Assembly (NCBI GenBank): GCA_030265885.1
Contig: JAJDGX010000006.1
Coordinates: 1 to 43,127 of the forward strand
Length of the DNA stretch: 43,127 nucleotides
Source: Ruminococcaceae bacterium OttesenSCG-928-L11
GTDB taxonomy: Bacteria; Bacillota; Clostridia; Oscillospirales; Ruminococcaceae
Direction: 5' to 3'
Part shown: positions 1,082 to 38,787 of the stretch, in pieces
Position numbering within the stretch: the first letter of the stretch is position 1
Layout: every line of letters begins with the position of its first letter
Translations under genes and position numbers: made by a program
The notes under the pieces: model-generated
Seen by the model: only the letters and a program-made list of their open reading frames with translations
What the model was told of the DNA's origin: nothing
Database searches by the model: none

Positions 1082-2503
1082 GTGAGTCAACCAGCAATCA
1101 TCCTAATAACCTGCGATGAGCTGCGCAGAGATGCTATCAGCGCTTACGGCAACTCCGTTGTCCCGACACCCTATATTGATTCCATTGCACAAAATGGAAC
1201 GAGATTTGATCGCTGTTATACTGTAAGTCCATGGTGCTTGCCAGCGCGTTGCTCAATTTTGACAGGAAAATATCCACATCACACGGGTGCCTACAGCAAC
1301 TTCCGCAAGTGTCCGTTGGATGTTGGTATCGACAACATGTTTACTCTGCTTCACAATGCTTCCTATCATACATCTTTGTTTGGCAAATGCCACTTTGCCC
1401 CGGTGCCTTATTCCCAAACGAGGCCGGGCAAGACCCTGCCGTATGATCAATTTCGTGATTACTATGTCCGGCTTGGAATTGACCATCTGCGTCTACAGGA
1501 CGATAAGCAGGTCTCTATTTGGTTTTACGATGATTACAGCAAAGAGCTGGATGCAGCAGGATACTTAAAATCCTATCGGGATTGTAACTGGGATGCAAAA
1601 AACCAATTGGTATATCCGTTTCCCGGGCCATCAAAATGGCATCCTGATGCATGGGTTGGGCAACAGGCAACGGATTACATTAAAAACTGGAACAGGCCAG
1701 ACCCTTTCTTCTCATGGATCTCTTTCAGTGGTCCACATTACCCATTCGATGCTCCGGAAGAATATTTGCAGCGCGCAAGTGACATCGAACTGCCACAACG
1801 TCTTGGCAAAGAAGGTGAATGGTGCGATCCCGGCCGCATTCATTACTGTAATTATCATGGCCCGGGAAATATTGACGGTGCGGGAAAGGCTCCCGAAAAA
1901 GGCTGCAAGAATTATTCGGAAGCCTATTGGGATCGCATGAGACGCAGTTACTATGCGAACATTGCGCTTATTGACGATCAGGTCGGCGAAATTCAGAAAG
2001 CAGCAAAAGCTCGCTTTGGGGACGATTGTCTCATATTCTTTACCGCCGATCACGGTGAGATGCTAGGGGATCACGGCATCTGGGGAAAGCACAACTGCGG
2101 ATACGATCAAGTATGGCGCATTCCCTTGCTGGCACATTTTCCCGGCATGGATTCACCAACAGTTTCTGATGCGATTGTGAACTTAAACGATCTGTTGCCG
2201 ACAATGCTGGAGGTGGCGGGACTCCCTTCAGCTATCTGCGATGGAATCAGTTTGCTGGAGCAGAAAAAGGGCAACGGCTATTCATATACCGTTGCAGAAG
2301 GCGAAGGGTACGCTGCCATTACAGACGGGAGATACAAATATATACATATTCAAAAGGATGGCAAGTTTTTCAGGGAATTTCTTGATTTGCAAAATGACCC
2401 GGATGAATTTTGCAATATCATCGCAGAACCGAGTTGCCAGAGTGAAGTCGCGCGTATGAGTATGCGACTGTTGGAGCATTTTTTTCCGGCGCTTCTTCCT
2501 TAA
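1082..2503 (+). CDS. Cytosolic type I sulfatase (Cys-type, formylglycine-dependent)
   Basis: This 473-residue alkaline-phosphatase-superfamily sulfatase hydrolyses sulfate esters. The signature CLPARCSILTG near residue 51 is the C-x-P-x-R motif whose cysteine is converted to formylglycine; in anaerobes this is done by a radical-SAM maturase (anSME), not seen here. The metal site is visible in ITCDELRRDA near the N-terminus and TADHGEMLGDHG near residue 326. The end, EFLDLQNDPDEFCNI, is the usual C-terminal sulfatase strand. There is no signal peptide, so it should act inside the cell on an imported substrate. The start is a GTG with TAGGAGG seven bases upstream. It is followed on the same strand by an arylsulfotransferase. 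The substrate cannot be told from sequence. Confidence 0.9.
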   Translation: MSQPAIILITCDELRRDAISAYGNSVVPTPYIDSIAQNGTRFDRCYTVSPWCLPARCSILTGKYPHHTGAYSNFRKCPLDVGIDNMFTLLHNASYHTSLFGKCHFAPVPYSQTRPGKTLPYDQFRDYYVRLGIDHLRLQDDKQVSIWFYDDYSKELDAAGYLKSYRDCNWDAKNQLVYPFPGPSKWHPDAWVGQQATDYIKNWNRPDPFFSWISFSGPHYPFDAPEEYLQRASDIELPQRLGKEGEWCDPGRIHYCNYHGPGNIDGAGKAPEKGCKNYSEAYWDRMRRSYYANIALIDDQVGEIQKAAKARFGDDCLIFFTADHGEMLGDHGIWGKHNCGYDQVWRIPLLAHFPGMDSPTVSDAIVNLNDLLPTMLEVAGLPSAICDGISLLEQKKGNGYSYTVAEGEGYAAITDGRYKYIHIQKDGKFFREFLDLQNDPDEFCNIIAEPSCQSEVARMSMRLLEHFFPALLP

Positions 2504-2689
2504 GTATTTTCCCATATTATTGTGGTTCGCCCGACCCAATAAGGCGAAACGCTTATGATGGTATAAGCCAGAACACATTCCAACCGATTATATAAATAGG
2601 AGGGGGTGACGCTAAAATAAGTGCCTCGCGTTCACTGACAAAAGCATCTGATAAACACGATGATATGACAGAGAAAGGGGCTTAAAGTT

Positions 2690-4366
2690 ATGACTAGAAT
2701 CAGCATTTCTCCGCGGCCACCAATTAATCAGGGAATTGACAGCACAAACGAAATGGTATTGGCGCACACACAGACATACAACCGCCTGTTATCTGCAGTG
2801 GATTCTACGCATACTATCCAAGGGGGACCAATCGTTGTGTTGAACCCCTATGGAACAGCGCCGCTTAGCGGAACAATAGGTCTTTGGGCTGAAGATGAGC
2901 GACCAGTTACAGTGGAGATTTACACGCCCAACAGTGGCGTGGTCATCTCTTACCAAGTTCAGCCAACAGTTGGTGCAAATGTGTTGCCGTTGGTAGGTCT
3001 GGCACCGGAAATCGCTAACGAAGTGCATATCATTGATGAGGACAGCGTGTCCTATATCACCACTGTTACAACCGCTGCATTGCCGGCTGTAGACGCAGAC
3101 ATTCCCCCTTCTACAGGAAGAAAAACGGGTTTTCCTATTGTACAGATAACTGTGCCGCTGGTGAATCCACCCCAAAAGACTGATGAGCTTTATTTTATTT
3201 CAATATCCAGACGTTACAATATTGGGGTGGATTATAAAGGAGTTGTACGGTGGTACACTACTTTGGATATTCCATCGTTCAACCTGCTGCGCCTTGCAAA
3301 TGGCACATTCCTATCCACCGGCAATGATTTTGACACGTTTAAACGGCTGTATAACTATGATATGACAGGCCGTGTTTACACTGTTTATATTCTGGATAAC
3401 AATGCCCACCACTCACTTTATGAAATGCCCAATGGTGAAATATTGATGCCTTCAGAATATACCGGACAAACCTCATCAGACGGCTTGTCTATTATTAGCT
3501 TGAGTGATGGATTGGAAACTGCCTATTATGATATACGAGAAGTCATGGACACCAACCGAGTGGCTCGCCCTCAGGAGCCAACTGCCATTGACTGGATTCA
3601 CATTAACCAATCGTTTTACAATGCAACGAATGATCTGTTAATTACATCCGGCCGTCATCAAGCAGTTTGGGGTATGAAAGCAAATGATGGCACACTGGTG
3701 TTCATTCTTGGCAACCGAGAAGGCTGGAGCGCTGATTTTCAACAGTATCTGCTTACTCCAGTCGATGAGACAGGAACTCCGATTTATGATTTCTCACAGC
3801 CAGCTGATGTTGCACGTGCAGATAAGGAGTTCTGGAACTGGGGGCAGCACGCTGTTCTGGAAGTACCAAACAACACACCGGGCATAGTTGAGTTTTTCTT
3901 ATTTGACAACGGAAACTATCGCTCCAGAACTGATGCCGATAGTCTTTTGCCGAATGACAACTGGAGCCGTATTGTACGCTACTTGGTTGATACAAACAAC
4001 ATGACGGTACAAATGTTGTTTGAGTATGGCCGAGTAGAGGTGGCTTCCAGAGGGTATTCGTGTTATGTGAGCAATCAACAGGTGCTTGCAAATGGTAATT
4101 ATTTGGTTAATTTCGGCGGACATATCGTTGATGAAAACGGTCGCAATATAACCGAAAACTTTGGATATAGCGATATCAATGATCCTCTTGCTGGCAGCCA
4201 GGCCATGGGCTTGTTGACGCTGCAGGAAATTGATCCAGCAACAAAGTTGCCCGTTTTTGAGTTGACTAGTACTTCCGGTAAGCTTAAAAACCAAGTGGAT
4301 GATGGCCCTGATTTCCACATAGAATTTTACAGCTTCCGCTCCTTCAAATTTCCAATTATTCAGTAA
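2690..4366 (+). CDS. Arylsulfate sulfotransferase (ASST family)
   Basis: This 558-residue protein moves a sulfo group from a phenolic sulfate ester to another phenol without PAPS. Landmarks of the ASST beta-propeller are DWIHINQSFYN (about 303-313), ITSGRHQAVWGM (about 319-330) and NWGQHAVLEVPNN (about 382-394). These match the DWxHxN, SRHQ and QHA segments that carry the active-site histidines and arginine in the Escherichia coli enzyme. An N-terminal beta-sandwich region precedes them. No signal peptide is visible, unlike the periplasmic enterobacterial enzyme, so the location is uncertain. The ATG follows GAAAGGGG. It lies 186 bases after the sulfatase; that gap holds a strong AGGAGGGGG followed by only a four-codon GTG ORF, perhaps a leader. 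A terminator follows the gene. Confidence 0.88.
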   Translation: MTRISISPRPPINQGIDSTNEMVLAHTQTYNRLLSAVDSTHTIQGGPIVVLNPYGTAPLSGTIGLWAEDERPVTVEIYTPNSGVVISYQVQPTVGANVLPLVGLAPEIANEVHIIDEDSVSYITTVTTAALPAVDADIPPSTGRKTGFPIVQITVPLVNPPQKTDELYFISISRRYNIGVDYKGVVRWYTTLDIPSFNLLRLANGTFLSTGNDFDTFKRLYNYDMTGRVYTVYILDNNAHHSLYEMPNGEILMPSEYTGQTSSDGLSIISLSDGLETAYYDIREVMDTNRVARPQEPTAIDWIHINQSFYNATNDLLITSGRHQAVWGMKANDGTLVFILGNREGWSADFQQYLLTPVDETGTPIYDFSQPADVARADKEFWNWGQHAVLEVPNNTPGIVEFFLFDNGNYRSRTDADSLLPNDNWSRIVRYLVDTNNMTVQMLFEYGRVEVASRGYSCYVSNQQVLANGNYLVNFGGHIVDENGRNITENFGYSDINDPLAGSQAMGLLTLQEIDPATKLPVFELTSTSGKLKNQVDDGPDFHIEFYSFRSFKFPIIQ

Positions 4367-5376: not shown

Positions 5377-5943
5377 TACGCGCCTATCACTACAGATGGG
5401 ATAACAAATCGTTACCCCATATCGCCGAATCGAAAGGTCAGTGTTTATGACCTTTGCCTCAAAACGGTGCTCGATACAGTGCCGTCAGTGACGGGAGTGA
5501 CGGCAAACCGGATATGTCCTAATGGGCGACACTGCCGCCCCTCCTGACCCTCATCGCAAACGAGGACCCACAGCTCTCTAACGGCGGGAGTTTCCAGACT
5601 CGATAGTCCTCCGGTGGTATCCCTACACCACCCCAGGCGTTCGAGGTGCAGAAAGCATATGAAATCCAATGGGTTCAGAGCCCCAAAATCGATTCAAAGT
5701 CGAGGGCTACCCACAGCGCGCCCTGTGTCCGGCCCTGTCGCCCCTGTGTGGGGTTTGGGGAGCAAAGTCGGCCCCGTACCCATCACACCTCAACCGAAGC
5801 CCTGCTGCCCGAATTTGCAGAGGGATTAAAAAGCTGATTGTCATCACACTTTCGGCAAACCACATCAGTTGAAAAGAGTGCAGACCGGCTATAAAGTCAA
5901 GGGAGGAAAAATGATGATTTTCAACGATGTTTCAATATAGTTT

Positions 5944-7134
5944 TCAACAGACTGAAGCAGGGATCATGGGCTGATAAGGTTTGTTGTCGCGTAAGACAGC
6001 AAAGATTACAGAGGTCATCTTTTTGGTGACATGCCCGATGATTTTCATATATTTCATGCCTTCAGCGGCCTTCTTTTCGTAGTAAGCACGAAACATGGGG
6101 TCATGTCGGACAGCAGAGGTCGAGGCCATCCAAAGAGCTCTTCGCAGATAGGGAGAGCCGCGCTTGGACATATGGTTCTTGTAGCCGACAAAATCCCCGG
6201 ATTGCTTTACCGTAGGGTCGACACCGGCGAACGCAGCCAATTTATCCGCAGATTTGAAGCGAGAGATGTCTCCAATCTCAGAAAGTATAACAGCAGCGAG
6301 TGTTGGTCCGATGCCGGTGATGGTTGTGATAGGTGTTTTGAAATCTGCCATAAGTGCGGCGATTTTTTCATCCATGCACTCAATTTGGCTCAAGGTGAAT
6401 TTGATTTGTTTGATGTAATTTTGTATCAGTTCTGCATAGACACCGCATGTATCGGCCACTCCAAAAGTCGCCTTTGCAGTTTCAATGATTTCCACCGCTT
6501 TTGCCTGTCCATAGCGTCCGTTGGTGTATTTGAGCAAGAGATTGGTCAGAGTTGATGTGCGAATTCTGCAAAGCATTTGCGGTGTCGGATAGTGCAGCAG
6601 GATTTCTTTAGACGCTACCCCAAAAGTATCTGTGAAAATGTGGTTGTATTCGGGGAAAACCTGATCAAGCAATGTGATTACTTTACGCTTGATATCAGAT
6701 ACAGAGTCCATCATGAAGCATCTGTTCCGGCAGAGCTCCCGCAGAGCGTGAAGTTTTTCCTGCGGTACTTTGGTCTCAGAAAATCTGCCAAATCGGATCA
6801 CTTCGGCGATGATGAAAGAGTCGCGGGAATCGCTCTTATTCTGTCGTATATAGAGACCCCGTAGGGCGTCAGATTGGATAGGGTTGAGGACATGAACCTG
6901 ATAGCCTTCGTTCTTCAATCGGGTGTAAATTGCCAGCCAGTAGTGACCGGTGGACTCCATTCCAAACACAAGCTGGTTTCTATGTGTGGTGAATTTGCGT
7001 ACTTTATCCAGCAGCTTATTGTATCCAGTGCAAGAGTTTTGGAAACGAAACGCCTTTTGAACAACATTCCCATCGCTGTCCATGATAATTGCTTCATGTG
7101 CGCTCTTGGCAATATCGATCCCGATAATAAACAT
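5944..7134 (-). CDS. IS110-family transposase (DEDD recombinase)
   Basis: This 396-residue protein has the RuvC-like DEDD domain at the N-terminus (FIIGIDIAKSAHEAI, then GMESTGHYWLAIY near residue 59). The C-terminal Transposase_20 domain carries TTITGIGPTLAAVILSEIG, FAGVDPTVKQSGDF and SKRGSPYLRRALW, which holds the candidate catalytic serine. These enzymes cut and rejoin DNA guided by a bridge RNA. Length is normal and the frame intact, so the copy may be active. The ATG has only a weak GGGGT ribosome site, and translation may depend on the upstream left-end transcript. It sits in non-coding DNA between two genes of the older element, so it disrupts nothing obvious. Confidence 0.95.
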   Translation of the reverse strand: MFIIGIDIAKSAHEAIIMDSDGNVVQKAFRFQNSCTGYNKLLDKVRKFTTHRNQLVFGMESTGHYWLAIYTRLKNEGYQVHVLNPIQSDALRGLYIRQNKSDSRDSFIIAEVIRFGRFSETKVPQEKLHALRELCRNRCFMMDSVSDIKRKVITLLDQVFPEYNHIFTDTFGVASKEILLHYPTPQMLCRIRTSTLTNLLLKYTNGRYGQAKAVEIIETAKATFGVADTCGVYAELIQNYIKQIKFTLSQIECMDEKIAALMADFKTPITTITGIGPTLAAVILSEIGDISRFKSADKLAAFAGVDPTVKQSGDFVGYKNHMSKRGSPYLRRALWMASTSAVRHDPMFRAYYEKKAAEGMKYMKIIGHVTKKMTSVIFAVLRDNKPYQPMIPASVC

Positions 7135-7160
7135 AGTAATACCCCATGTTAAAAGAATTT

Positions 7161-7327
7161 ACAGACAGCCCTCACAGTCCTATGGATCATATCCTGCTTC
7201 GATATTAGCGGAAAATCAAGTGATCCCCGCATCCGGCTTATAAATGAAATCCCATAAGATAGAGGTCCCACGCTGCACACAGCGGACTTGGGGCCGCAAG
7301 GAAAAAGAAGGGAACCTCTGTCTGTAT
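7161..7327 (-). ncRNA. Candidate IS110 bridge RNA
   Basis: Transcription from the TATAAT at 7339-7334 (minus) should start near 7327. ACAGACAG (minus, 7325-7318) pairs perfectly with CTGTCTGT (minus, 7168-7161), closing a roughly 165-base domain just before the transposase start. Inside, AGAGGTTCCC pairs with GGGACCTCT around one bulge, and CGCTG/CAGCG forms a smaller hairpin. The segment TTTATAAGCCGGATG closely resembles the predicted right-end/left-end junction (TTTATAGCCGGGCGATG), as expected for a donor-binding loop. Known bridge RNAs are about this length and position. The structure was folded by eye only. Confidence 0.6.
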
Positions 7328-7333
7328 GAGGCT

Positions 7334-7339
7334 ATTATA
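7334..7339 (-). promoter_or_regulatory. Left-end -10 box, completed by a right-end -35 on circularisation
   Basis: The minus strand reads TATAAT here, with no good -35 in the flank. The right end carries TTGACT (minus, 5900-5895). Joining at the shared CCGG gives TTGACT-17 bases-TATAAT. The promoter would therefore be strong only in the excised circle. Confidence 0.6.
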
Positions 7340-7512
7340 TCATCGCCCGGTTTGGACGTTGATAACGATGCTCCCGACGCTGGCTGCTTCAGCGGGGGAA
7401 ACTTTAGAAAAGTTCCCCCCGAACCCCCTTCAAAGCTGTCCTTTGCACGGATAGAAGATATTGGAAGAAATGAGGAGGTTGACCTGATACTATTATATAG
7501 CAGGAAAAAGAA

Positions 7513-7668
7513 GCGGGGTCGGTAGGGCTGCCCCCACTTCGCTCAAACTGCCCCGCGGTGCGGGTCAGGGAACGGTCAGATACAGGGGTCGGATTTGCCG
7601 ACACTAGACTCTCAGCGGGGTCGGAATCTCGAATAATCCCTTTGTCAAGCGGTAAACTGCGGGGTCGC
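7513..7668 (+). repeat. Iteron-like GCGGGGTCGG direct repeats
   Basis: GCGGGGTCGG occurs at 7513-7522 and 7615-7624, with variants CAGGGGTCGG at 7583-7592 and GCGGGGTCGC at 7659-7668. All face the same way and lie just downstream of an HTH gene, so they may be binding sites for a replication or regulatory protein. Confidence 0.5.
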
Positions 7669-7709
7669 TGTGAGAAACGCCGTCAAATATGATTTGGATG
7701 CTGGATAAA

Positions 7710-7739
7710 GGCCTTATGTCGCCAAGGCGCCATAAGGCC
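7710..7739. repeat. Stem-loop
   Basis: GGCCTTATG and CATAAGGCC form a perfect 9-bp stem, with GCC/GGC pairing again inside the loop. No T-run follows on either strand, so it is not an obvious terminator. Confidence 0.6.
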
Positions 7740-7950
7740 GAAAAACACGCGTCCGGCAATGCCGATCGGGATCAAAAGCATGACATAACTTTTTCTCTTC
7801 TGTATAAGATTTTGATGCCAGAAAAGCAGATAGTGGCATCAAAACGCCAATAATCTTGAATGTAGTATTTATACCCATCCCTTTATTGGCTGAAAATACC
7901 CTTACACAGCAGGGGTGTCCACTTGTTGGAGTCCCCTGTATTTGCTCCTG

Positions 7951-10159: not shown

Positions 10160-10642
10160 ATGCAGGAAGATATTGAAAACAAAACTGTTACCCTCGCCAT
10201 CAGCGGCACCAAGCTCACCGGCAGAGTGCTGAAAGCCGCTATCGCCAAATACCTTGCCTATCGCAAGGCTAAGAAGCTGGATAAAGCCCATGCCGATGTG
10301 ACCCCACATGGTAAACAGTCGGTTAAGGAGCTGATTGGCCAGAATCAAGGCGTTTCCAACATCGAGATAAATAACAGCAACATCAAGGATTTTGAACGTG
10401 TTGCCCGAAAATACGGTGTGGATTTCGCCGTGAAAAAGGATAAAAGCGTGACCCCACCCAAGTACCTTGTGTTCTTCAAAGCCAAGGATGCCGATGCGCT
10501 CACTGCTGCCTTTACCGAGTACACCGCCAAGACAGTGAAAAAGGCCAGCCGCCCCTCCGTGCTGCAAAAGCTCCAGAAGTTCAAGGATATGGTCAAAAAC
10601 GCTGTGGTCAATCGTACCAAGCGAAAGGAGCATGAACGATGA
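10160..10642 (+). CDS. pcfB: PcfB-family conjugation protein (DUF3801)
   Basis: This 160-residue basic protein starts MQEDIENKTVTLAISGTKLT and contains GVDFAVKKDKSVTPPKYLVF, a pattern of the PcfB/DUF3801 family. PcfB of plasmid pCF10 is an accessory factor that helps present the relaxosome to the coupling protein. It overlaps the next gene by four bases (ATGA), so the two are translationally coupled, as is normal for pcfB-virD4 pairs. GGAGG lies 13 bases before the ATG. In the 128-base gap upstream, a GAGGAGG precedes a 12-codon ORF (MNKFSRLRGNA plus stop), and CCCCGGCGAAAC/GTTTCGTTGGGG forms a hairpin; the ORF may be a leader peptide. Confidence 0.85.
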   Translation: MQEDIENKTVTLAISGTKLTGRVLKAAIAKYLAYRKAKKLDKAHADVTPHGKQSVKELIGQNQGVSNIEINNSNIKDFERVARKYGVDFAVKKDKSVTPPKYLVFFKAKDADALTAAFTEYTAKTVKKASRPSVLQKLQKFKDMVKNAVVNRTKRKEHER

Positions 10643-11817
10643 AGCAGATAAATATCAAAAAGCTGGTGCTGCCCAATCTGCCCTATGTCCTCATCGCTCT
10701 TTTTGCTACGAAAATCGGTCAGGCATATCGCTTTGCCGCCGGTTCGGATTTCGCGGCAAAGGCTCTGGGCATCACGGACGGTTTCGCTGCTGCGTTTCAA
10801 AGCATAGCACCCAGCCTTCACCCGATGGATTTTCTTGTGGGTGCTATCTGCGGAATTGCCCTTCGGCTTGCGGTATATATCCGTGGCAAGAATGCCAAGA
10901 AATATCGCAAGGATGTGGAGTACGGCAGCGCACGGTGGGGCAATGCAGAGGACATCAAGCCCTATGTCGACCCCAAACCGGAAAATAATATCATCCTCAC
11001 CAAGACTGAGAGCCTTACCATGAACAACCGCCCCAAAAGCCCCAAGACTGCCCGGAATAAGAATGTTTTGATTGTGGGCGGCTCCGGTTCGGGCAAGACC
11101 CGCTTCTGGCTCAAGCCCAATTTAATGCAGTGCCAGTCAAAGGATTTTCCGGTGTCATTTGTAGTCACCGACCCCAAGGGAACCGTGGTTTTGGAATGCG
11201 GTAATATGCTGCGGCGCAATGGCTACAAGATAAAAATCCTCAACACCATCAACTTCAAAAAGTCGATGCGATACAATCCATTCTCCTACATAAAAAGCGA
11301 AAAGGACATTTTGAAGATGGTGACAACGCTCATTGCAAACACTACCGGCAACAGCAAATCTTCCGACGATTTTTGGGTGAAAGCGGAACAGTTGCTCTAC
11401 ACCGCGCTCATCGGCTACATCTACTATGAAGCGCCAGTTGAGGAGCAGAATTTCTCCACCCTCGTTGAGTTTATCAATGCGATGGAGGTTCGAGAGGATG
11501 ATGAGGAGTTCAAAAATCCGATTGACCTGATGTTTGATGAGCTGGAACAGAAGAACCCCCGGCACTTTGCTGTCAGGCAATATAAAAAATATAAATTGGC
11601 GGCAGGCAAAACAGCAAAAAGTATACTTGTGAGCTGCGGCGCACGGCTTGCCCCCTTCGACATTCAGGAGCTGCGCGACCTGACGGAATATGACGAGCTT
11701 GGGCTTGATATGCTGGGTGACGAGAAAACCGCCCTGTTTATTATCATCAGCGAGGTAACCACCATCACAGGAAACCCATTCGACAGAATATCTTACACTT
11801 CGCCGACATGCCTATAA
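10639..11817 (+). pseudogene. VirD4-like coupling protein, truncated by element insertion
   Basis: Type IV coupling proteins are membrane ATPases that pass DNA to the conjugation channel. This copy has two membrane helices (about 9-30 and 58-80), the segment YGSARWGNAEDIKPYV and a Walker A, VGGSGSGKTRFW. Homologous sequence runs to TALFIIIS, about residue 371. After that, EVTTITGNPFDRISYTSPTCL is foreign and ends at a chance stop. About 200 residues with Walker B (DEFANI type) are missing. The break coincides with the proposed left end of the serine-recombinase element (GA at 11752). The ORF end overlaps the opposing recombinase gene. It should be non-functional unless the element excises. 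Confidence 0.88.
11752..11753. other. Proposed left junction of a serine-recombinase element (GA core)
   Basis: The VirD4 reading frame leaves its family consensus just after AGC at 11749-11751, where homologues continue with Asp (GAC). TnpX/TndX-type recombinases join ends at a GA dinucleotide, and GA occurs here. The recombinase stop lies only 40 bases further, as expected for a terminal integrase gene. The other end must lie beyond 43 kb. Confidence 0.5.
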
Positions 11818-13421
11818 AAAACCCTAATATCTCTCATTACAATGCCACTTTCATCTTTGTCAGGCGCGCCGACTTCGATGTGCTCTACCAGTTCCTCCAG
11901 AAGGTTTCGATCAATGTCATCCACATCGCCATATCTCTCGATTTTGTCCATCCACTCAGAAATATCTTGGGTGGATTTTTCTTGCCCCGCTTGATTTTCA
12001 CGAAGGCGGCGCTGTTCTTCTTGGCGCGTGCACCGTTCACGCTCACACTCGCGGAGCAGCATGGTGAGAGTATCGGCAGTGATTGTACCGGCAACCTTAT
12101 CCTCATAGAGTTGCATTTCCTTTTTGTCCAGTTCATTCAGCCTTGCATCAATCTGCTTTATTTGAGCAGCAGTATCAAATGCTGAATCCACGCCATTTAA
12201 TCGGTGCACCAGATCAGAGCGCATTTTCCCCTTGTCGAGGGCGATTTTTCTCGCATGTGTCTGGATATCCTCCAACACAAGCTGCTTGAGAACATCTTGC
12301 TTGATCCGGTGGGTTGAACAGCACGTCCTGCCGCTTGTTGAATAACGGGCGCATTCATAGGTTCGATAGACAGTTTCCGTACCATTTGTGTACGTATGCC
12401 GTATATTGGTGGGTGTCATGGTTCCACCGCAGTCAGCGCATCGGAGAAGTCCACGAAAAAGTGAAGGGGATGGAGGATGCGCGTTCTTCTGTCGGAGCCC
12501 GGCACGCTGATTAATTTCCTGCACTGTGCTCCATGTATCCTTATCTATAATTGGCTCGTGTGCATTTTCCACCCGCACCCATGTTTCCTCCGGCATTTTT
12601 ACCGCTTTTTGAAAGCGATAGGACACACTGCCATATCGAAGCTGCTCCCGGCATCCAATGTATGCCGGATTTTCCAGAATCGCCTTTACCGAGCTGTGTC
12701 CCCAAACCGACCGGGATTTGCGCGGCCATTCCCGCCCATTGTGCTGATATTCGTATAGCAGAGGTGACAGGATTCCCTCAGTGTTCAGGATTCCGGCGAT
12801 TTTCCCATAAGAGGTATTTTGCATTCTCATCTCGAAGATCCGTTTGACCACCACAGACGCGTAATCATCGATCAGAAAATTGTGCTTATCGCCGGGATCG
12901 ACCCGGTAGCCATAAGGGGGACGGCCTGAAACCCGCTTGCCTTCCAGTGCCATGGAGCGATGCGCCGCTTTGATTTTGTTGCTGAGATCCTTCAAATACT
13001 GGTCATTCAGCAGGCTGTAAAAGGGCATCATATCGTTTTCTGTCTGACCGGTATCGATATTGTCTGCCATGGCCACCAGTCTGCAACCAAACATCGGGAG
13101 CATATAATCGGTATACTTGCCTACCTCGATATAATTGCGGCCAAAGCGGCTCATATCCTTGATCAGGATCAAGTTGATTCTTCTGGAGCGAACATCGTCC
13201 ATCATCTCCTGAAAAGCAGGGCGGTCGCAGTTGGAGCCACTCCAGCCATCATCGCAGTAAATCTTCTCGATATGCCAGCCTTGTTTCTGCGCATAATCGG
13301 TCAGCAGCTTCCGCTGATTCTCTACGCTGCCAGATTCTGAACGAAGGATTCCCTGTTCCCTTTGGCGGCGATCCTCTACGCTGACACGGGTATAAATCCC
13401 CGCACTAACCGGCCTGGCCAT
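11793..13421 (-). CDS. Large serine recombinase (second of tandem pair)
   Basis: This 542-residue recombinase has a resolvase domain at the N-terminus (GIYTRVSVEDRRQ, catalytic Ser near residue 14; LILIKDMSRFGRNYIEVGKY near 82-101). A recombinase domain (GRPPYGYRVDP onward), a zinc ribbon (LRCADCGGTMTP with later CCSTH) and a coiled-coil-rich C-terminus follow. Such proteins integrate and excise conjugative transposons. Its start lies inside the end of the upstream recombinase (17-base overlap), so the two are co-translated. Its stop lies about 40 bases from the proposed element end. It may need its partner, since pairs are kept in some elements. All motifs are intact. Confidence 0.95.
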   Translation of the reverse strand: MARPVSAGIYTRVSVEDRRQREQGILRSESGSVENQRKLLTDYAQKQGWHIEKIYCDDGWSGSNCDRPAFQEMMDDVRSRRINLILIKDMSRFGRNYIEVGKYTDYMLPMFGCRLVAMADNIDTGQTENDMMPFYSLLNDQYLKDLSNKIKAAHRSMALEGKRVSGRPPYGYRVDPGDKHNFLIDDYASVVVKRIFEMRMQNTSYGKIAGILNTEGILSPLLYEYQHNGREWPRKSRSVWGHSSVKAILENPAYIGCREQLRYGSVSYRFQKAVKMPEETWVRVENAHEPIIDKDTWSTVQEINQRAGLRQKNAHPPSPSLFRGLLRCADCGGTMTPTNIRHTYTNGTETVYRTYECARYSTSGRTCCSTHRIKQDVLKQLVLEDIQTHARKIALDKGKMRSDLVHRLNGVDSAFDTAAQIKQIDARLNELDKKEMQLYEDKVAGTITADTLTMLLRECERERCTRQEEQRRLRENQAGQEKSTQDISEWMDKIERYGDVDDIDRNLLEELVEHIEVGAPDKDESGIVMRDIRVFYRHVGEV

Positions 13422-15063
13422 AGTCTGCCTCCAGCTTCAGCATTGATAGATCCACATTCTCCACAAAGCGGTAGTAAACTGTGATATTGCAAATCCGTTG
13501 ATTGTTTTCGACGGTGGCCGCGCCAATTTCAATGCGGTCAATCAGCTCCAACAAGGTTTCCGCGTTGAGACTCTCCAGATTTGTATGGCGCTTAATGATG
13601 TTTGCCCACTCGGTGACATTGCTCCAGTCTTGACGGCTTTCGGTGATTTTCTGTTCCAGCAAAGTCGCACGCTCCTTCTTGCCAAGCCGTTCCTGCTCAT
13701 ATTTCTCCATAAGGGAATGGAACACTGTTTCCGGCACGGTGCCTTTCACGCGATCTTCATACAAGCATTGAATCAGCTTGTCCAGTTCCGCCAGGCGAGA
13801 GGTCAAATGTCGTAACTCTTTACGGTGCAGAGCAAGATCACTGGCTTCTATGCTGCTCTTTTGCCGAATGATCTCCCTGATCACAGCCTGCTCATCCAGA
13901 GCCACCAGTACAGCATTGCGGCGGATGTCCTCCAGAACGAGTTGGGTCAGTGCCTTTTCCTGAATAATGTGGGCGGTGCAGGCGCTTTTGCCACTGCGAG
14001 AGTAGCTACCGCACAGAAAGAGGGCGCTGTACTCCACACTGCCATCCTTGCGGATATTCTTTTTGCTTTGATAGCGCATGGTCGAGCCGCAGTCGGCGCA
14101 GTAGAGAAGCCCGGCAAAGCTGTTGACCGATCCGTTGGAAATGGCTTTTGGACGATGCTTGCGGGCATTGATGCGCTGCACCTGATCCCATGTTGCCTGA
14201 TCGATAATGGGTTCATGGGTGTTTTCCACTCGAATCCAATCTTCCGGATCTTTCTTCACAATCTTCTTTGTCTTGAATGAGACCTTGCCCTGTTTCCCCT
14301 GCACCATGTGCCCGATGTAGGCTTCATTCTGCATCAACAGTTTAATGGCTGAGCTGCTCCATAGACCGGTTCCCATGGTGGAGCTGCTTCCGCCGTGCTC
14401 GGCGTACCACGCAGCTCGGGGAGCGATAATCCCGTCCTCATTGAGCGCACATGCGATTGCGTAATAGCCTTTTCCCGCACAGCGCATGGCGAAGATTCGC
14501 CGAACTACCGGGGCAGTCTGATCATCAATAATCAGCTGATGCTTGTCCTGTGGGTTCTTGCGGAAACCATATGGAGCGAAGCTCCCCATGAATTTACCGC
14601 TTTCCGCGCGAGCCTTGAGGATGGTTCTGACTTTTTTGCTGGTGTCCCGAGAATGAAATTCGTTCATCAGGTTTTTATAGGGCATGATATCGTTGTTGTT
14701 GTGGATGGTATCGACCGAATCATTCAAAGCCACGAACCTGCATCCAATGGTAGGAAAGATGTAATCAGTGAACTGACCGACCTCAATGTAATTACGTCCG
14801 AAGCGGCTCAGGTCTTTGCAAATGATCAGATTGATTACACCGTCTTTCGCATCGGCCAGCATCTTCTGAAAACTGGGGCGCTGAAAATTCGTACCTGACC
14901 AGCCGTCATCGACGTAGATCTTGTGGAGCACCCAACCAGTCTGCGCCTCCACATGCTGGGTCAAAATTGCTTTCTGGTTTTCGATGGAGACGCTCTCACC
15001 GGAGCGCTCATCGTCCTTGCTGAGTCGCGCATATATGCCGACACTGTATGCCTTTGGTATCAT
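13405..15063 (-). CDS. Large serine recombinase (first of tandem pair, TnpX-like)
   Basis: This 552-residue protein starts MIPKAYSVGIYARLSKDDER, with the catalytic serine in YARLS near residue 15, and carries IICKDLSRFGRNYIEVGQFT in the resolvase domain. A recombinase domain (FAPYGFRKNPQDK), a zinc ribbon (LLYCADCGSTM with a later CTAH), a coiled coil and a C-terminal strand region follow. It resembles its downstream partner at recognisable but distant identity, so the pair is an old duplication. GGGAGGATAAACAA precedes the ATG. An inverted repeat at 15096-15127 lies just upstream and could be an operator or recombinase site. TnpW is encoded further upstream on the same strand. Confidence 0.95.
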   Translation of the reverse strand: MIPKAYSVGIYARLSKDDERSGESVSIENQKAILTQHVEAQTGWVLHKIYVDDGWSGTNFQRPSFQKMLADAKDGVINLIICKDLSRFGRNYIEVGQFTDYIFPTIGCRFVALNDSVDTIHNNNDIMPYKNLMNEFHSRDTSKKVRTILKARAESGKFMGSFAPYGFRKNPQDKHQLIIDDQTAPVVRRIFAMRCAGKGYYAIACALNEDGIIAPRAAWYAEHGGSSSTMGTGLWSSSAIKLLMQNEAYIGHMVQGKQGKVSFKTKKIVKKDPEDWIRVENTHEPIIDQATWDQVQRINARKHRPKAISNGSVNSFAGLLYCADCGSTMRYQSKKNIRKDGSVEYSALFLCGSYSRSGKSACTAHIIQEKALTQLVLEDIRRNAVLVALDEQAVIREIIRQKSSIEASDLALHRKELRHLTSRLAELDKLIQCLYEDRVKGTVPETVFHSLMEKYEQERLGKKERATLLEQKITESRQDWSNVTEWANIIKRHTNLESLNAETLLELIDRIEIGAATVENNQRICNITVYYRFVENVDLSMLKLEADYGQAG

Positions 15064-38665: not shown

Positions 38666-38726
38666 GTAGAGTAGGAAAGAGCCGCCTTGCCGCATTACTG
38701 CGATAGGTCTGCCCAGCCCCCTCTCA

Positions 38727-38760
38727 GAACCGGACGTACACCTCTCGATGTATCCGGCTC
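38727..38760 (-). ncRNA. Group II intron domain V
   Basis: The 34-base minus-strand element starts GAGCCGGATACATCGAGAGG and ends GTACGTCCGGTTC. It forms the typical GCCGGAT/GTCCGGTT helix with the AGC-triad position and a GAGA tetraloop. Confidence 0.92.
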
Positions 38761-38787
38761 GCCATTGCTGCTTCAAATCAGGTTTAA

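What the first reader, a model, noticed from the sequence alone, without database searches (positions are those of the whole stretch)
7161..7350. IS110 bridge RNA with closing stem and a promoter completed by circularisation
The left end encodes a roughly 165-base RNA whose ends pair over 8 bases and start right after a predicted start site. It contains TTTATAAGCCGGATG, close to the expected right-left junction TTTATAGCCGGGCGATG. Joining the ends at the shared CCGG places TTGACT exactly 17 bases from TATAAT. The RNA word GTGCAG also occurs in the flank (GTGCAGACCGG at 5878-5888). These agree with the bridge RNA mechanism known for IS621.
Basis: partly seen in the sequence, partly recalled or inferred. 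Interest (0 to 1): 0.75.

Follow-up and report, generated by a model that had tools for sequence, protein, structure and literature searches.

The report
Jumping gene with RNA address label

Summary
The RNA is real. It lies on the minus strand of an IS110-group element with an intact recombinase (7134-5944, catalytic residues conserved).

The guides fix the ends at CT cores: left 7503-7502, right 5883-5882 (about 1,620 bp). The left target guide matches 12 of 12 bases at the left end. The right target guide GTGCAG and left donor guide AGCCGG match the two sides of the right core. The right donor guide AGCAGG pairs with the left end. Multi-copy relatives show the same kind of edges without using the guides. 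The junction promoter is TTGACT-17-TATAAT, as claimed, but uses the TATAAT at 7497-7492.

Similar boxes sit there in most relatives of four groups, but not in IS621. It may let the element make its bridge RNA while still integrated. That function is inferred. IS110 bridge RNAs are known; this is a variant.

The parts
5882..7503 (-). Whole IS110-group element from the left CT core (7503-7502) to the right CT core (5883-5882), about 1,620 bp counting one core
   Evidence: Four guide matches in register with the CT cores; same kind of edges in multi-copy relatives
5944..7134 (-). IS110 recombinase, 396 aa; D7, E60, D102, D105 and S312 conserved
   Evidence: Pfam PF01548 and PF02371; NF033542; alignment with IS621 and relatives
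7161..7325 (-). Core of the bridge RNA: closing stem P1, target-binding loop, donor-binding loop
   Evidence: Covariation; covariance-model hits in held-out groups and whole genomes
7318..7325 (-). P1 closing stem, 5' strand ACAGACAG (pairs with 7168-7161)
   Evidence: 96% of cells paired, 5 of 6 pairs counted with double changes
7161..7168 (-). P1 closing stem, 3' strand CTGTCTGT
7299..7310 (-). Left target guide CTTCTTTTTCCT
   Evidence: Identical 12 of 12 to 7513-7502; 15/15 LE template unique
7273..7278 (-). Right target guide GTGCAG
   Evidence: Complement of CTGCAC at 5883-5878
7233..7238 (-). Left donor guide AGCCGG
   Evidence: Identical to right end 5890-5885; changes together with the right end in relatives
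7193..7198 (-). Right donor guide AGCAGG
   Evidence: Complement of CCTGCT at 7504-7499; changes together with the left end in relatives
7504..7513 (-). Left half of the target (left flank) CTTCTTTTTC
7502..7503 (-). Left CT core
   Evidence: Register of the left target guide and right donor guide
5882..5883 (-). Right CT core
   Evidence: Register of the left donor guide and right target guide
5878..5881 (-). Right half of the target (right flank) GCAC
5895..5900 (-). -35 box TTGACT of the junction promoter (right end)
7492..7497 (-). -10 box TATAAT of the junction promoter (left end)
   Evidence: 17 bp from TTGACT across the joined ends
7331..7366 (-). Hairpin region before P1, a candidate for the 5' stem-loop of IS621
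   Evidence: Arms pair better within than between elements; arms were chosen by eye, so this is suggestive only
7334..7342 (-).
   Evidence: Similar box in most relatives; promoter function inferred

Best explanation
A complete IS110-group insertion sequence of about 1,620 bp (7503 to 5882, minus strand) that moves by bridge-RNA-guided recombination. Its long left end encodes an RNA with a closing stem, a target-binding loop and a donor-binding loop. The recombinase uses that RNA to recognise the joined ends of its own circle (AGCCGGT-CT-GCTATATAATAG) and a matching target (CTTCTTTTTC-CT-GCAC), and exchanges strands at the shared CT. Shown from sequence: recombinase family and active-site residues, RNA covariation, guide-to-DNA matching in this element and its relatives, the ends, and a TTGACT-17-TATAAT promoter at the junction. 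Inferred: that the RNA is made, binds the protein and guides it. Also inferred, at about 0.5: in this subgroup the RNA can start from an internal extended -10 promoter at 7342-7334, giving an RNA that begins at the closing stem even while the element is integrated.
For: Recombinase domains and active site. RNA covariation: 19 of 27 pairs with double changes in 12 sequences; 24 of 27 in 25 sequences (alignment fitted to the structure). Model R1 finds the RNA upstream of recombinase genes in held-out groups and in 247 genomes gives 7 hits, all in IS110 elements or a remnant. Guide templates 15/15 and 12/12, unique in the window and absent from 0.85 million background positions. Guide swaps across 15 elements: 0 of 20,000 permutations as good for each of the four guides. 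Guide-independent edges from multi-copy relatives. Junction -35/-10 spacing of 17 in 14 of 15 elements. Internal box: 14 of 18 elements with 5/6 or better (shuffle mean 2.7, maximum 7); TG at the extended position in 18 of 20 held-out elements.
Against: No RNA, circle or empty site was observed. The element is single-copy in this assembly and no empty site was found. The single-sequence minimum-energy fold is not the covarying fold (-51.3 against -46.4 kcal/mol) and is not better than shuffles. LDG matches six bases and stops one base short of the core. L047 has no left end that its guide predicts, and L075 has a 20-bp junction spacing. In the further groups the internal box is weak (TACACT, GATAAA).
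Confidence: 0.94

Rival explanations
1. One reading: the ends are at the shared CCGG (about 7350 and 5888) and the circle promoter uses the TATAAT at 7339-7334.
For: CCGG is shared, and the join also gives a 17-bp spacing (sequence).
Against: The guides match at 7513-7499 and 5890-5878 instead. The hairpin sequence left of 7350 is shared in layout by relatives L047 and L075, so it is inside the element. Multi-copy relatives have CT-type edges.
Confidence: 0.02
2. As in IS621, the bridge RNA comes only from the junction promoter; the internal TATAAT is merely the 3' arm of the 5' stem-loop.
For: Relatives show a covarying hairpin whose 3' arm contains the box. IS621 makes its RNA only from the junction in published work (PMC11208160). 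The internal box has no good -35.
Against: The box, often with TG before it, keeps its distance to P1 while the hairpin sequence around it changes freely. In this element about 125 nt of extra sequence separate the junction -10 from the hairpin.
Confidence: 0.4
3. The structured leader only regulates recombinase translation and is not a guide.
For: The RNA ends 26 nt before the start codon, and small RNAs do regulate the ISPpu9 transposase (PMC8450116).
Against: It does not explain why the two loops match each element's own flanks and ends, or why near-identical elements L031 and L046 carry different right guides that each fit their own flank.
Confidence: 0.02

Closest known systems
IS621 and its bridge RNA (PMC11208160, PMC11208158; DNA read here as L107)
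   Same: DEDD recombinase with the conserved serine; RNA in a long left end; target loop then donor loop; left guides read the top strand and right guides its complement; CT core; -35 in the right end and -10 in the left end
   Different: 29% protein identity; closing stem P1 joins the two loops here and is not seen in IS621; internal -10-like box before P1; LDG stops one base before the core; about 125 nt extra between the junction -10 and the hairpin in this element
ISEc21 (IS110 type, PMC11187229)
   Same: Upstream non-coding RNA; bottom-strand match lies 5' of the top-strand match, as here; circle forms a promoter
   Different: Only described in the paper; its record was not in the collections, so no sequence comparison
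IS1111 group (ISEc11, ISPpu9)
   Same: DEDD recombinase; guide RNA from a non-coding end; ISPpu9 small RNAs have their own promoters, a precedent for transcription outside the junction
   Different: IS1111 RNA lies downstream of the gene and the ends carry sub-terminal inverted repeats; neither holds here

Membership tests
IS110 group with bridge RNA | N-terminal DEDD domain and C-terminal domain with conserved serine | tested here: met
IS110 group with bridge RNA | Left end longer than right end, RNA in the left end | tested here: met
   Left end 369 bp, right end 60 bp by the ends found here; RNA at 7325-7161
IS110 group with bridge RNA | Two internal loops whose guides match target and donor on both strands | tested here: met
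IS110 group with bridge RNA | Short shared core, usually CT | tested here: met
   CT at 7503-7502 and 5883-5882
IS110 group with bridge RNA | Promoter across the joined ends | tested here: met
   TTGACT-17-TATAAT by sequence; activity not tested
IS110 group with bridge RNA | 5' stem-loop before the target loop | tested here: inconclusive
   Pairing hairpin at 7366-7331, arms chosen by eye; L012 unclear
IS110 group with bridge RNA | RNA bound by the recombinase and needed for recombination | not testable with these tools
   needs experiment
IS621-type bridge RNA architecture | 5' stem-loop, TBL and DBL without a stem closing the two loops | tested here: not met
   P1 covaries here; IS621 layout from PMC11208158 and L107
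IS1111 group | Guide RNA downstream of the gene; sub-terminal inverted repeats of 7-17 bp | tested here: not met
   RNA is upstream. The only 8-nt inverted match between the ends, TGATTTTC, lies inside the bridge RNA and is not sub-terminal in the left end

The most novel reading that the evidence does not exclude
A broad subgroup of IS110 elements in Clostridia and Coriobacteria carries a built-in extended -10 promoter that starts the bridge RNA at a closing stem. The guide would then be made while the element is integrated and could direct its own excision. In IS621 the described promoter exists only after the circle has formed.
Probability: 0.45. Interest if true: 0.65.

Novelty: new variant of a known kind. 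Interest (0 to 1): 0.42.

Why it matters
Bridge RNAs are programmable DNA-rearrangement guides, and this recombinase is only 29% identical to IS621. The subgroup offers orthologues with a differently built RNA (two loops tied by a closing stem) whose guides can be read off directly. The authors of the IS621 structure state that it is unclear whether excision is mediated by the bridge RNA (PMC11208158); an internal promoter would supply the RNA before excision and makes that testable. The pair L031/L046 is a natural retargeting case: near-identical elements with different right guides, each matching its own site. Novelty is limited: diverse IS110 bridge-RNA structures are already published, and those figures could not be viewed here.

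Tried and rejected
Rfam has no match here at gathering scores. Single-sequence folding is uninformative. RNAalifold on the four closest sequences gives a different pairing for the target loop; set aside because the hand-read P2 helix covaries over 12 and 25 sequences. Plasmid, phage and viral collections hold no close relative. Empty-site searches with both flanks and with the target word found no empty site. The standard promoter scan does not report the internal box, which lacks a -35. ISEc21 could not be fetched. One script was an unused stub.

Full report
What is there. The window carries an IS110-group recombinase gene on the minus strand (7134-5944, 396 aa). It has both IS110 Pfam domains and matches NCBI's IS110 RNA-guided transposase model. 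The DEDD residues (D7, E60, D102, D105) and the serine (S312) are invariant in an alignment with nine relatives including IS621. IS621 and ISCro4 are the solved relatives. No second copy was found in the host assembly, which is 76% complete. Relatives were found mainly in Clostridia and Coriobacteria, with more distant ones in Paenibacillus and other Firmicutes.

The RNA. Upstream of the gene in the close relatives lies a region of similar layout. A 12-sequence alignment, trimmed to the closing stem, was tested with a named structure: closing stem P1, target-loop stem P2 and its tip P3, donor-loop stem P4. Of 27 pairs, 19 show a change on both sides that keeps pairing. 82% of cells pair, against 68% in shuffles and 38-52% when partners are slid; the covariation score is 0.53 against 0.26. 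P3 is the weakest helix (52% of cells). A covariance model from these 12 finds full-length matches directly upstream of recombinase genes in groups not used to build it (about 1e-5 to 1e-21); it does not find IS621. In 247 whole genomes it gives 7 hits: this element and two used in the model (G103, G165), three more beside IS110 genes, and one in an internally deleted IS110 copy. In a 25-sequence alignment 24 of 27 pairs covary, with the caution that this alignment was fitted to the structure. Single-sequence folding alone would not have shown this.

The ends. The RNA says otherwise. The left side of the first loop reads CTTCTTTTTCCT (7310-7299). The same 12 bases occur once more in the window, at 7513-7502, where the sequence goes on as GCTATATAATAG. 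There CCTGCT is the complement of AGCAGG in the second loop. At the other side, AGCCGG-T-CT-GCAC (5890-5878) contains the six bases of the left donor guide and, overlapping the core, the complement of GTGCAG. As templates, 15 of 15 and 12 of 12 positions match. Each full match is unique in both strands of the window, and none of 0.85 million background positions matches as well. This fixes the ends at CT cores 7503-7502 and 5883-5882. Independent of any guide, near-identical copies at different sites in relatives (G260, G124, L015/L016) show edges of the same form, CT on the left followed by a -10-like box and TCT on the right. The hairpin left of 7350 has counterparts in relatives L047 and L075, so 7350 is inside the element.

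Guides and DNA change together. Across 15 elements the donor halves change with their guides: AGCCGG, AGCTGG, AGTTGG, AGTTAA and AGTTAG at the right end; CTGCT, CTACT, CTCGT, CACGT, CTTGT and CTGGT at the left end. Target guides fit their own flanks better than those of other elements: mean 6.8 of 8 against 5.7 on the left and 6.9 against 5.3 on the right. No permutation in 20,000 reaches the observed fit for any of the four guides. The elements are related to each other, so this is not a formal probability, and the donor ends were located with the guides. L031 and L046 are near-identical elements whose right guides differ (TTAGATTG, TAAAAGTG), each matching its own flank, and whose core is CA with a matching right donor guide. 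Their recombinase genes share a frameshift, so whether they still move by themselves is open.

Promoters. With the ends found here, the junction reads TTGACTTTATAGCCGGTCT|GCTATATAATAG, a -35 and a -10 exactly 17 bp apart; 14 of 15 elements have 17 and one has 20. A hexamer with at least 5 of 6 matches to TATAAT at 4-12 nt before P1 occurs in 14 of 18 elements (shuffles: mean 2.7, maximum 7), and TG at the extended -10 position in 18 of 20 held-out elements, where the hexamer itself is often weaker (TACACT, GATAAA). IS621, read here from L107, has no such box before its target loop and no closing stem (read from the sequence); its published layout is TBL at 34-98 and DBL at 110-177 after a 5' stem-loop (PMC11208158). 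I infer, at about even odds, that this subgroup can transcribe its bridge RNA while integrated. The counter-reading, that the box is only part of a stem-loop arm, is not excluded: the hairpin arms pair better within than between elements, though the arms were chosen by eye. ISPpu9, an IS1111-group element, has small RNAs with their own promoters (PMC8450116), so the idea has a precedent in the wider family.

How it works, most likely. The element circularises; the joined ends form a promoter, and the RNA and recombinase are transcribed. The recombinase uses the second loop to hold the circle junction and the first loop to hold the target, and exchanges strands at CT, as shown for IS621 (PMC11208160, PMC11208158). 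Every step beyond the sequence evidence is inferred from that system.

Novelty. The element is a new member of the IS110 group by every sequence feature that could be tested. The covarying closing stem and the internal box set its subgroup apart from IS621, hence 'variant'. Published work already notes diverse bridge-RNA structures in the family (PMC11208160), and I could not view those figures, so priority for the closing stem is uncertain.

Noticed in passing
L031 and L046, near locus position 3000-3046: Two near-identical IS110 elements at different sites share the same frameshift in the recombinase gene (DTFRKYFF against DTFGSTS in L017), and both have a CA core instead of CT; either a mobilised defective element or a programmed frameshift.
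   Followed up: partly
L021, L023, L026 (Coriobacteria): These elements have a 16-20 nt inverted repeat (CGAATATGGGATAAAG) whose left copy covers the internal -10-like box and whose right copy lies downstream of the gene, resembling IS1111 sub-terminal repeats although the RNA is upstream.
   Followed up: partly
L113 1300-1650: Decayed IS110 copy in a genome of the same genus: bridge-RNA region joined directly to the end of the recombinase gene by an internal deletion.
   Followed up: partly
window 10639-15063: A type IV coupling-protein gene (10639-11817, only the first part of the domain) runs into two large serine recombinases on the other strand (11793-15063), as if a recombinase-bearing element sits in the conjugation gene.
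   Followed up: no
window 38666-38762: Group II intron domain match to Rfam RF00029, minus strand.
   Followed up: no
window 7687-7820: A stretch next to the element is repeated at about 82% identity elsewhere in the host genome (C66 and C112).
   Followed up: no
window 1082-4366: Sulfatase gene followed by an arylsulfotransferase gene.
   Followed up: no
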